Source: Candidatus Peregrinibacteria bacterium CG2_30_44_17
Lineage (GTDB): Bacteria; Patescibacteriota; Gracilibacteria; UBA1369; UBA12470
NCBI GenBank assembly: GCA_001873565.1
Contig: MNZJ01000037.1
Location: 1 to 61,622 of the forward strand
Direction: 5' to 3'
DNA: 61,622 nt
A model generated the notes under the pieces. It made no database searches. It was not told the DNA's origin and worked only from the letters and a program-made list of their open reading frames with translations. Positions 9,157 through 12,704 of this stretch are shown here, in pieces; within the stretch, counting starts at the first letter, position 1; every line of letters starts with the position of its first letter. A program made the translations under genes and the position numbers.

Positions 9157-10095
9157 CTACACAATATCCTGGATCTTCTTGATCCACCTTTTTTTGTAGT
9201 ACTGTCGTCTGTCGAGGTTGTGGAATTTGAGCATTTTGTCGCTGATTATTATGCTCGCTTCTTTCCCTTCGTTTTCGGTGAACGACTCGAGTTTTTGCTG
9301 CATCCTTTTCATTTGCCATGAACGTAGCTTCTCTTCTATCCTGTCTCCGAATTTGTTGCGAAGCAATTTCTCTTGAAATCTGCGAATCGCGCGTATCCAT
9401 CCTCTGTTGGTGCGGTAATGTCTTTTTTGATAATTGATTGGTGTTGCGAAAAAACTCTCGAGGAATCTGCGGTTATGGTCGATCAGATCTATATATGTTT
9501 GATAATCACCGCAAACCGGCTGCATGGTTTTGAGCCAATAGGCTAGATATATGTCGTGCTCAAACGCAATACTGTCCATATTCAGATTGTCCTCTGTGAG
9601 ATAGAAGCTGAGGCAGAAGCGGCCTTGTATTTTCTGGCCGTGACGGCGGACGCCGAATAGGTGAATCCATATTGTCAGAAGAGTTCTGGCAATGAACATT
9701 CGACCAGGCTTTGTTACTACAACTAAGTCTATATCGGATTTTTTTGTTGGATTGTCGTAGGAAAGATTGTTAGCAACCGCTACCAGTCTTATAAACGGTA
9801 TGATATTAAAAATCTTTCTGAATTTATTTACGCGTTGCCAATATTTTTTTGCAAGCTTGCGTCTCTCATGCATCTTGAAGAAAGCTTCTTCGTTGCCTTT
9901 TAAACAGTAGAGTCCGTCAGAGTAGCTTAACGCTGCGCTATTCTTGAGATATAGTTCGATCTGATGTTCGTCCAGAGGTAGCTTGTAAAGGTACTCTTCC
10001 ACTTCTTCGCGCGACAATGGATAGTCGAACATGTCGAAGAATGCGAATGTTGATAAGATCGCCTGTTTGAAATTTATCTTAGTATTGAGTACCAT
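9157..10095 (-). CDS. Nucleotidyltransferase-like protein with N-terminal winged-helix
   Basis: About 312 residues from the ATG at 10095 (MVLNTKINFKQAILSTFAFF). The track start at 10137 would overlap uvrC on the other strand. Residues 10-75 look like a winged helix (FFDMFDYPLSREEVEEYLYK). Around residue 115, NPTKKSDIDLVVVTKPGRM resembles the DxD-bearing strand of a polymerase-beta-type nucleotidyltransferase fold. The C-terminal 100 residues are very basic and helical (RRFQEKLLRNKFGDRIEEKL). Function unknown; the fold suggests nucleotidyl transfer or a degenerate relative. It is divergent from uvrC with 26 bases between starts. Confidence 0.6.
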   Translation of the reverse strand: MVLNTKINFKQAILSTFAFFDMFDYPLSREEVEEYLYKLPLDEHQIELYLKNSAALSYSDGLYCLKGNEEAFFKMHERRKLAKKYWQRVNKFRKIFNIIPFIRLVAVANNLSYDNPTKKSDIDLVVVTKPGRMFIARTLLTIWIHLFGVRRHGQKIQGRFCLSFYLTEDNLNMDSIAFEHDIYLAYWLKTMQPVCGDYQTYIDLIDHNRRFLESFFATPINYQKRHYRTNRGWIRAIRRFQEKLLRNKFGDRIEEKLRSWQMKRMQQKLESFTENEGKEASIIISDKMLKFHNLDRRQYYKKRWIKKIQDIV

Positions 10096-10121
10096 AGGCG
10101 TAGTCAATTTATTGGTCTTAA

Positions 10122-12257
10122 ATGCTACCAGAAACACAAAAGAAAATACAGAGAATCATTAAGAAGCTTCCCGGCAGGCCCGGTATCTATAAAATGATAG
10201 GCAAGGATGGAGCTGTTCTTTATGTTGGCAAGGCCAAGGATCTCAAGAAACGAGTGCAGACATATTTCAGAGACTCTGCTGATTTAACTGTCAGAATTTC
10301 CAAAATGATTTCGCGTGTTTGGAACGTTGAATACATAACAGTTGATTCGGAACTGGAGTCTCTTATCCTCGAGTCTAATCTGGTTAAAGAGCTTAAGCCT
10401 CGCTACAATGTTATGCTCAAAGATGATAAGAATTTTGTTTATATCAAGGTTTCTGACGAGGATTTCCCTAGAATCAAAATCGTAAGACAGGTTGAAAAAG
10501 ATAATGCTAAATATTACGGACCGAAGACGTCTGCAAAAAAAGTTTGTAAGACTGTAGAAGTTTTGAGGTCTCTATTCCCAATACGCGATTGTGACCTTGG
10601 TATTCGTCATATCAGAGATGATGCAATGAATGGATCAGAAGTTGATGTTTTTAAGAAAACTATTCCGTATCCATGTTTGCAGTATCATATAAAGACATGT
10701 AGTGCCCCTTGTGTTGGCGCTGTCTCAAAAGAAGATTATGCGGAAATGTCTACTGAAATTTGTAGATTCCTTGATGGTAAGTCCAATGGACTTATGGCAA
10801 CTCTCAGAAATGATATGGAAATCGCCGTTTCCGAGAAGCGTTTTGAGGATGCTGCCGGTATTCGTGACAAGATCCAGTCTATCGAGAGTGTGCTCGAGAG
10901 GCAGAAAATTTCGGAATCCGACGATGTGAACCAAGATGTGATCGGGTATTACCTCGGAGTTTCGGAAGTTTTTATCAACTTGTTTGTCATTAGAAGCGGA
11001 AAACTTATTGATAATGAGAACTTTGTATTATCTGTTCCGGATGTTTCTGATTATGACTTGCCTGAAGTTTTTGCAGGATTTCTGCGTGACTATTATGAGA
11101 AGAGCACTTTCTTGCCGGATTCCGTTTTGTTGCCGTTTGCAATAGACGAAGAGCAGCTTCTCTCTGCCATGCTGGGATTTAAGATTTTTTGCCCTAAAAA
11201 AGGGGAGAAACATAAGCTTCTTGCAATGTCGAACAGGAACGCGGAACATTATTACAAGCAGATGCTTGTGAAATGGGAGTCAGACAAAGCCTATGATCCC
11301 GCTAAGGCTCTAATTGAACTTGCAAACGTCTTGGGGATCAAGAAAAAAATCGTAAGAATCGAAGGATATGATATTTCGCATAATTCAGGTGAGTTTACTG
11401 TCGGCGCGATGGTTGCTTTTGACAAAGGCGAGCCTAAAAACAGTGATTATCGTCATTTTAAGATAAAAACCGTCGATGGCATTGATGACTATGCGTCTCT
11501 ATCCGAAGTTATAACGCGCAGGCTGAGGTACCTATTCGCTGATATCCCAGAAGGAATCATAGTAAGACGAGGACTTAAAAAAAACATTCCCGAGATCGAA
11601 AAAATTATTAAGGCTGAGCAGTTATATGGAGGTGATTTGATTATGCGAAACACGGTAATAGTTGAAAAGAAGGAGCAAATCGTTGGTATTGGTCGTTTGC
11701 GATCTCAAACGAAAGACCAAGATACTATTCATTCTCTCTGGGTGTCTCCCAAAATGAGAGGTAATGGAGTTGGTCATGTTATCCTGCGTGAATTGATTTC
11801 CAGGTCTAAAGCTAAGAGAATTTATATAGGTTGTTATATGAAGAACGCGCCTTTTTACGAGAAGTTCGGATTCAGACATGTGAAGAAAGCACCATCTTTT
11901 ATGAATAAGACAATGGATCATTGTGACGGTGATTGCGAGGTTGCCGGGGTTTTTGTTTATGAGAAGAGCAAAGATGCTTCGTTTGGCAAGATGCCTGATA
12001 TCTTGCTCCTTGATGGTGGAAAGGGTCAGCTATCGACGGTTGCGAAGGTTTTGGTGCATTTTGACGTTTCAATTCCGATAGTTGCTATGGATAAAAGCGG
12101 CGAAAAGTTGTGGATTTTGCAGGGCGGAAAGGTTGCTCTCTCCACTCTTGCATCCGATTCTCAGCCATTTTATCTCCTGAAAAGAGTTATCGATGAAGCA
12201 CATAGATTCTCCAATAAACTGCGCGAAGATTTGCAAATTAAAAAATTAACCCAATAA
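10122..12257 (+). CDS. uvrC: UvrC excinuclease subunit with a GNAT domain inserted in the nuclease domain, no HhH
   Basis: 711 residues. Order: GIY-YIG nuclease (PGIYKMIGKDGAVLYVGKAK) at about 17-95; Cys region (HIKTCSAPCVG) at about 185-197; UVR helix pair (EKRFEDAAGIRDKIQSIESV) near 245-265; RNase H-like 3' nuclease from GYDISHNSG near 425. After EVITRRLRYLF, where UvrC normally runs in about 15 residues to the next block, about 140 residues form a GNAT acetyltransferase (SLWVSPKMRGNGVGHVIL; APFYEKFGF). UvrC then resumes with PDILLLDGGKGQLS and ends soon after DEAHRFSN. The two helix-hairpin-helix motifs that normally end UvrC are absent. UvrC makes the dual incision in nucleotide excision repair. 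yqeY starts three bases after the stop. Confidence 0.95.
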   Translation: MLPETQKKIQRIIKKLPGRPGIYKMIGKDGAVLYVGKAKDLKKRVQTYFRDSADLTVRISKMISRVWNVEYITVDSELESLILESNLVKELKPRYNVMLKDDKNFVYIKVSDEDFPRIKIVRQVEKDNAKYYGPKTSAKKVCKTVEVLRSLFPIRDCDLGIRHIRDDAMNGSEVDVFKKTIPYPCLQYHIKTCSAPCVGAVSKEDYAEMSTEICRFLDGKSNGLMATLRNDMEIAVSEKRFEDAAGIRDKIQSIESVLERQKISESDDVNQDVIGYYLGVSEVFINLFVIRSGKLIDNENFVLSVPDVSDYDLPEVFAGFLRDYYEKSTFLPDSVLLPFAIDEEQLLSAMLGFKIFCPKKGEKHKLLAMSNRNAEHYYKQMLVKWESDKAYDPAKALIELANVLGIKKKIVRIEGYDISHNSGEFTVGAMVAFDKGEPKNSDYRHFKIKTVDGIDDYASLSEVITRRLRYLFADIPEGIIVRRGLKKNIPEIEKIIKAEQLYGGDLIMRNTVIVEKKEQIVGIGRLRSQTKDQDTIHSLWVSPKMRGNGVGHVILRELISRSKAKRIYIGCYMKNAPFYEKFGFRHVKKAPSFMNKTMDHCDGDCEVAGVFVYEKSKDASFGKMPDILLLDGGKGQLSTVAKVLVHFDVSIPIVAMDKSGEKLWILQGGKVALSTLASDSQPFYLLKRVIDEAHRFSNKLREDLQIKKLTQ

Positions 12258-12260
12258 AAC

Positions 12261-12704
12261 ATGTTGAAAGACCAGATCGTATCGGATTTGAAACAGGCTA
12301 TGCTGGCCAGGGATGAAATTCGGGTTTCCACTTTGCGTATGCTCAAAGCTGCAATTATGAAGTTCGAGGTTAGTGGTGCCAAAAAAGAGGCAACCGAGGA
12401 AGATGTTATCGACTTGGTAAAGAAAGAGCTGAAAGCCAGGAAGGACTCTTCGGAGCAGTTCCGTAATGGCAATAGGGATGATCTCGCTGACAAAGAAGAC
12501 GCGGAAGCTAAGATACTTGAAGCTTATATGCCTGAGCAGATGAACGAGGAGCAGGTGAGAGCTATCGCTACGGAAGTTGTCTCTAATTTTGGCACTGTCG
12601 GACCTCAAGATTTTGGCAAGGTAATGGGTGCGTGCATGGGTAAGTTAAAAGGGAAGGCAGATGGAGAATTGGTTAACAAAGTTGTGAAGGAACTATTGTC
12701 TTGA
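12261..12704 (+). CDS. GatB/YqeY-domain protein (YqeY)
   Basis: 147 residues, the full YqeY length. Helical N-terminal half MLKDQIVSDLKQAMLARDEIRVSTLRM (quoted in part) with the signature KEELKAR-like KKELKARKDSSEQF. C-terminal domain has YMPEQMNEEQVRAIA and the closing GKVMGACMGKLKGKADGELVN. This tail matches the tRNA-binding tail domain of GatB. Cellular role is not settled; it is thought to act on tRNA or amidotransferase. It follows uvrC by three bases and ends at a bidirectional terminator. Confidence 0.92.
   Translation: MLKDQIVSDLKQAMLARDEIRVSTLRMLKAAIMKFEVSGAKKEATEEDVIDLVKKELKARKDSSEQFRNGNRDDLADKEDAEAKILEAYMPEQMNEEQVRAIATEVVSNFGTVGPQDFGKVMGACMGKLKGKADGELVNKVVKELLS

What the first reader, a model, noticed from the sequence alone, without database searches (positions are those of the whole stretch)
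10122..12257. UvrC with a GNAT acetyltransferase domain inside its nuclease domain and no helix-hairpin-helix end
Seen: about 140 residues with a GNAT CoA loop (RGNGVGHVIL) and FYEKFGF sit between EVITRRLRYLF and PDILLLDGGKGQLS, blocks normally about 15 residues apart in UvrC. The C-terminal (HhH)2 region is absent. The frame is continuous and the UvrC catalytic blocks are kept. Inferred: the inserted domain is active, or replaces the HhH in binding DNA or a partner. A link between acetyl-CoA and excision repair would be new to me.
Basis: partly seen in the sequence, partly recalled or inferred. Interest (0 to 1): 0.82.

Follow-up and report, generated by a model that had tools for sequence, protein, structure and literature searches.

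The report
UvrC repair nuclease with inserted acetyltransferase
In a whole class of tiny-genome bacteria the DNA-repair nuclease UvrC carries a complete acetyltransferase-type domain spliced into the middle of its second cutting domain; it is real, ancient, often worn down, and sometimes replaced by quite different domains, which has not been described in the papers I could search.

Summary
Window 10122-12257 encodes a 711-aa UvrC with both nuclease domains and the RNase H catalytic residues kept, a 152-residue GNAT domain (residues 473-624) between RNase H helix and catalytic strand, and no C-terminal (HhH)2. It is no chimera: UvrC genes of the order's sampled families, and most lineages of the class (probably Gracilibacteria, Patescibacteria), have an insert at this site. 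AlphaFold gives a confident separate GNAT (Z 17.6 to N-acetylglutamate synthase) inside an intact UvrC RNase H fold (Z 23.1). New here: (1) the CoA site is kept in about two thirds of GNAT inserts (including the window) but lost many times (about 14 state changes), often with the catalytic-type Tyr, while the scaffold and a KxKRxY strand persist; (2) inserts evolve about twice as fast as the core yet under purifying selection, and have been exchanged between UvrC genes; (3) the same site also holds unrelated domains (other GNATs; DUF559 nuclease, serine hydrolase and nucleotidyltransferase in one genome each); (4) GNAT state and HhH loss are not associated, so 'replaces the HhH' is not supported. 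Most likely: an accessory, basic, acetyl-CoA-binding domain on a permissive loop, helpful but not essential to incision. Activity untested.

The parts
10122..12257 (+). uvrC gene, 711 aa, with inserted GNAT domain and no (HhH)2
10179..10409 (+). GIY-YIG nuclease domain (3' incision), residues 20-96
   Evidence: Pfam PF01541 1.7e-7; 1yd6 Z 17.6
10794..10889 (+). UVR motif (UvrB contact), residues 225-256
   Evidence: Pfam PF02151
10929..11261 (+). UvrC_RNaseH (RNase H-like) domain, residues 270-380
   Evidence: Pfam PF22920 1.5e-22
11325..11537 (+). catalytic RNase H nuclease domain (5' incision), first part, residues 402-472, with D417 (DISH)
   Evidence: PF08459; UvrC 8b0q Z 23.1 over 392-705
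11538..11993 (+). inserted GNAT domain, residues 473-624
   Evidence: Pfam, AlphaFold, 2r8v Z 17.6 and 5yge Z 16.9 over 473-617
11757..11774 (+). acetyl-CoA pyrophosphate loop RGNGVG, residues 546-551
11808..11825 (+). KAKRIY strand (residues 563-568), the element best kept even in eroded inserts (Y568 in 97%)
11856..11858 (+). Tyr 579 of FYEKFGF, position of the GNAT general acid by analogy
11994..12221 (+). catalytic RNase H nuclease domain, second part, residues 625-700, with D631 (DGGKGQ) and H694 (EAHRF)
12255..12257 (+). stop codon, 15 residues after EAHRF: no (HhH)2; yqeY (12261-12704) starts 3 bases later

Best explanation
A UvrC nuclease in which a GNAT domain of the N-acetylglutamate-synthase/ElaA type was inserted, before most of this class diversified, into a permissive loop of the 5'-incision RNase H domain (position, predicted fold and distribution shown; age inferred from the distribution on the core tree). 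It folds as a separate basic module in the 5'-incision domain and leaves the nuclease fold and catalytic residues intact (shown by sequence and predicted model). I think it acts as an accessory binding or regulatory domain of the incision complex, touching DNA or a protein partner through a surface that includes the conserved KxKRxY strand, and that in lineages with an intact site, including this one, it binds acetyl-CoA, which tunes rather than enables incision (inferred). Where that use is lost the CoA site erodes but the scaffold stays.
For: Insert at one site across the order's sampled families and most of the class. Predicted fold is GNAT, 479-600 mostly at pLDDT 82-92 (Z 17.6). P-loop R/G and Tyr tend to be kept or lost together: 47 both kept, 15 both lost, 14 mixed; independent pairs 6.2 the same way against 0.2, median p 0.03, so the site seems to be under selection where kept. 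Purifying selection on the insert: dN/dS about 0.04-0.25 in close pairs with intact GNAT. In all inserts, eroded ones included, the best kept columns are not the CoA site but Y568 (97%), GF (95/91%), P591 (90%), with basic KxKR at 61-73%. Eroded insert L045 is still predicted as GNAT (GCN5 Z 10.2). Inserts are basic, net about +10, charge per residue about twice that of the core. Own genome has Pta, so acetyl-CoA metabolism is likely.
Against: No biochemical evidence of any kind. Repeated loss of the CoA site (about 14 state changes) and absence of any insert in the stop-recoded lineages show that neither CoA binding nor the insert is needed for UvrC as such. Replacement by unrelated domains at the same site argues for a merely permissive loop. 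Relative domain orientation is not reliable (pTM 0.56). The eroded-insert model was made with an alignment that contained intact GNATs, which favours the GNAT fold.
Confidence: 0.48

Rival explanations
1. Near-neutral passenger: the helix-to-catalytic-strand loop of UvrC tolerates any folded domain; the GNAT got in once, cannot easily be cut out cleanly, drifts, and is now and then exchanged or replaced.
For: The same site holds other GNATs, a DUF559 nuclease, a serine hydrolase and a nucleotidyltransferase; about 14 changes of CoA-loop state; dN mostly 1.5-2.5 times that of the core; module exchange.
Against: dN/dS well under 1 in inserts; linked retention of P-loop and Tyr in about two thirds of inserts; non-CoA columns kept at 90-97% across the class. 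Folding constraint alone could explain part of this.
Confidence: 0.27
2. Active acetyltransferase: the domain acetylates UvrC, UvrB or another protein, or a small amine, and so couples acetyl-CoA level to excision repair.
For: Complete P-loop RGNGVG and Tyr 579 in the window; closest folds are active enzymes, NAGS and ArgA; Pta present.
Against: CoA loop lost in about a third of inserts; no substrate or partner gene identified; nothing tested.
Confidence: 0.18
3. The GNAT takes over DNA binding from the lost (HhH)2.
For: The window's family has GNAT and no HhH; inserts of HhH-less GNAT UvrCs are a little more basic (0.077 against 0.056 charge per residue, not corrected for kinship).
Against: 27 GNAT UvrCs keep HhH; eroded inserts occur with and without HhH; no association in independent pairs, though few pairs are informative; a recoded lineage (f25) lacks both insert and HhH.
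Confidence: 0.05
4. Assembly chimera or annotation artefact.
For: None found.
Against: An insert at the same site in about 85 other assemblies.
Confidence: 0.01

Closest known systems
UvrC (TIGR00194; structures 2NRT, 8B0Q, 1YD6)
   Same: GIY-YIG, UVR, RNase H nuclease domain and catalytic D, D, H; Z 23.1 to 8b0q with the alignment running around the insert
   Different: 152-residue GNAT between RNase H helix and the strand of the second catalytic Asp; (HhH)2 missing
GNAT domain of N-acetylglutamate synthase / ArgA (2R8V, 5YGE, Rv2747 5YO2)
   Same: best solved GNAT folds (Z 17.6, 16.9); P-loop and Tyr; sequence hits PRK07922 and PRK07757
   Different: inside a nuclease; glutamate-binding residues not checked; about 20% identity
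ElaA (5Z6N)
   Same: best sequence-profile match in the PDB, 8.3e-11, with the same VYLG...FYQSFGF pattern
   Different: stand-alone protein
Excinuclease Cho
   Same: weak match of the N-terminal part only; also a UvrC relative without (HhH)2 (own knowledge)
   Different: this protein keeps the RNase H half and the UVR motif

Membership tests
UvrC | equivalog model TIGR00194 over cut-off | tested here: met
   453.5 bits against 285.45
UvrC | GIY-YIG domain, UVR motif, RNase H D/D/H residues | tested here: met
   columns D417, D631, H694 invariant in A1
UvrC | C-terminal (HhH)2 | tested here: not met
   no Pfam match, protein ends 15 residues after EAHRF; relatives show it is an accessory feature that comes and goes (10 changes on the tree), so this does not unseat membership
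UvrC | UvrA and UvrB partners in the genome | tested here: inconclusive
   UvrA found; UvrB not over cut-off in this assembly but found in most relatives, both other genera of the family included: probable gap
GNAT superfamily | Pfam GNAT model over gathering score | tested here: met
   Acetyltransf_7 43.6 bits against 27
GNAT superfamily | fold | tested here: met
   predicted model, 2r8v Z 17.6 over 476-617
GNAT superfamily | Q/R-x-x-G-x-G/A CoA loop | tested here: met
   RGNGVG 546-551
GNAT superfamily | acetyl-CoA binding and transfer | not testable with these tools
   needs purified protein
ArgA / NAGS | NCBIfam equivalog score | tested here: not met
   PRK07922 35.8 bits against cut-off 180: a relative, not a member

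The most novel reading that the evidence does not exclude
The UvrC loop is a landing site on which bacteria of this class mount, exchange and replace whole enzyme domains, and the ancestral GNAT gates 5' incision by acetyl-CoA, so excision repair is tied to metabolic state.
Probability: 0.15. Interest if true: 0.85.

Novelty: new variant of a known kind. Interest (0 to 1): 0.62.

Why it matters
UvrC is a widely conserved repair nuclease, and no domain insertion in its catalytic core turned up in the papers I could search. A class-wide, old GNAT insert, worn down many times, exchanged between genes and replaced by unrelated domains at the same point, gives a natural experiment on what the loop in the 5'-incision domain tolerates and on how UvrC is regulated. 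Proteins with intact, eroded and no insert can be compared directly in a standard incision assay.

Tried and rejected
Chimera: rejected (insert at this site in about 85 other assemblies). HhH replacement: tested with independent pairs, no association. UvrB loss with a rewired pathway: rejected, relatives have UvrB and the window genome is fragmented. A close stand-alone source of the GNAT in the same or related genomes: in the 25 genomes searched the best stand-alone hits reach only about 43 bits against up to 177 for inserts, so the donor was not found. Naming the organism: one genome-contig scan returned only distant UvrCs, so the class name is inferred from TGA recoding in sister lineages. 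Insert outside the phylum: 47 genomes of the phylum of L033 (a Myxococcales record) show no insert at this site by the length of the PF08459 match (one, G318, has about 80 residues at another position in a fragment); other phyla were not tested. Papers: no hit for UvrC with GNAT and acetyltransferase domain, nor for UvrC with Patescibacteria or Peregrinibacteria; UvrC with candidate phyla radiation gives one paper that only names uvrC as a neighbour gene.

Full report
What is there. Window 10122-12257 (+) is one open frame of 711 codons. It is a UvrC by the equivalog model (453 bits, cut-off 285) with GIY-YIG, UVR and both RNase H-like domains. Catalytic residues of the RNase H half are present: D417 in DISH, D631 in DGGKGQ, H694 in EAHRF. 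Between the helix ...EVITRRLRYLF and PDILLLDGGKGQ lie 152 residues (473-624) that match GNAT models above their gathering scores. In UvrCs without insert the same gap is mostly 2-23 residues. The protein ends 15 residues after EAHRF, so the (HhH)2 is missing, and yqeY starts three bases after the stop.

Fold. AlphaFold with 58 sequences gives mean pLDDT 85; blocks over 479-600 lie mostly at 82-92. VIA-align places UvrC C-terminal halves on 392-705 around the insert (8b0q Z 23.1) and N-acetylglutamate synthase (2r8v Z 17.6) and ArgA (5yge Z 16.9) on the insert. By sequence profile the best solved relatives include ElaA (8e-11) and ArgA Rv2747 (8e-8). Domain orientation is not reliable (pTM 0.56).

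Distribution. In the relatives search 56 of 59 genomes match the query, and UvrCs from the order's sampled families carry an insert at this site. In the class, inserts occur in most families; the lineages whose UvrC needs TGA read as an amino acid have none, and families f18 and f28 have none. Outside the class one family of the phylum (f48, locus L155) has the same GNAT type, and a sample of another phylum (that of a Myxococcales record) has none at this site. On a tree of the UvrC core without the insert the GNAT-type insert lies in many deep lineages; inserts cluster largely by family in their own tree, which fits an old insertion inherited mostly vertically.

What happens to the insert. 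Of 129 tree rows, 52 have a recognisable GNAT with CoA loop, 32 an eroded insert (about 100-178 aa), 9 something else, 36 none. I assigned these states by hand; the rows are not a random sample. Among 76 alignable inserts, P-loop and Tyr are both kept in 47, both lost in 15, mixed in 14 (Fisher 1e-6, not corrected for kinship); with kinship, pairs agree 6.2 to 0.2, median p 0.03; the tree needs at least 14 changes of P-loop state. So the CoA site is probably selected where kept and dispensable elsewhere. Across all inserts, eroded ones included, the best kept columns of the GNAT part are Y568 of KAKRIY (97%), GF (95 and 91%) and P591 (90%), not the P-loop Arg (62%). The eroded insert of L045 still models as GNAT (Z 10.2 to GCN5), although its alignment held intact GNATs. 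Inserts have dN mostly 1.5-2.5 times that of the core, yet dN/dS is about 0.04-0.25 in close pairs with intact GNAT; dS is saturated in most pairs, so only the close ones count.

Exchange and replacement. In family f24 the insert tree rejects core clades (AU p 0.002, 0.0005, 2e-6) and the core rejects the insert clade L102+L130 (2e-22) (groups were chosen after seeing identities). So insert modules, or pieces of the core, have been exchanged. L127/L128 show the same pattern (core 80%, insert 35% identity). In family f21, nested among members with 9-32 residue loops, the site holds another GNAT type (4 genomes), a third GNAT (L124), a DUF559 nuclease (L098, 7.6e-35) and a nucleotidyltransferase (L117); L122 (f23) has a serine hydrolase. 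L081 has two GNAT copies in tandem, one with a worn loop. The non-GNAT cases are single genomes.

HhH. GNAT inserts occur with HhH in 27 and without in 25 rows, eroded ones in 19 and 13; independent pairs show no association, though few pairs are informative. The idea that the GNAT replaces the HhH is therefore not supported, though inserts are basic (net about +10) and slightly more so without HhH. A review states that (HhH)2 is needed for ssDNA binding and 5' incision in studied UvrCs (PMC7835731), so how HhH-less UvrCs manage is open.

Mechanism. Shown: position, predicted fold, wide distribution, selection, erosion, exchange, replacement. Inferred: a basic accessory domain in the 5'-incision half which contacts DNA or a partner, with acetyl-CoA as a ligand in lineages such as this one. 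An active acetyltransferase and a near-neutral passenger remain real rivals. The genome has phosphotransacetylase, UvrA and, by relatives, presumably UvrB.

Noticed in passing
L098:991-1506, L122:1877-2482, L117:2414-2926: UvrCs with a DUF559 nuclease, a serine hydrolase and an aminoglycoside-adenylyltransferase-like domain at the same loop; one genome each.
   Followed up: partly
L081:1975-2910: UvrC with two GNAT copies in tandem at the site, one with a worn CoA loop.
   Followed up: partly
L072, L158, L160, L161 (other classes of the phylum): 38-65 residue low-complexity inserts at the same loop that look like translated repeat DNA, a sign that the loop is permissive.
   Followed up: no
L157:1502-1864: 121-residue Lys/Glu-rich, coil-like insert at the same site in family f35.
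   Followed up: no
L051-L064, L066, L136-L142: UvrC genes of sister lineages with in-frame TGA, continuous under code 25; none has an insert of more than 20 residues at the site.
   Followed up: partly
G000 (whole genome): No UvrB over cut-off in the 97% complete assembly although UvrA and UvrC are there; relatives have it, so probably a gap.
   Followed up: yes
window 11808-11825: KAKRIY (Y568) is the most conserved part of the insert across the class although it is not the CoA loop; reason unknown.
   Followed up: partly
window 9157-10137 (-): 326-aa protein without Pfam or NCBIfam match, with a SDIDLVVV motif like that of nucleotidyltransferases, divergent to uvrC and overlapping its start by 16 bases as listed.
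   Followed up: no
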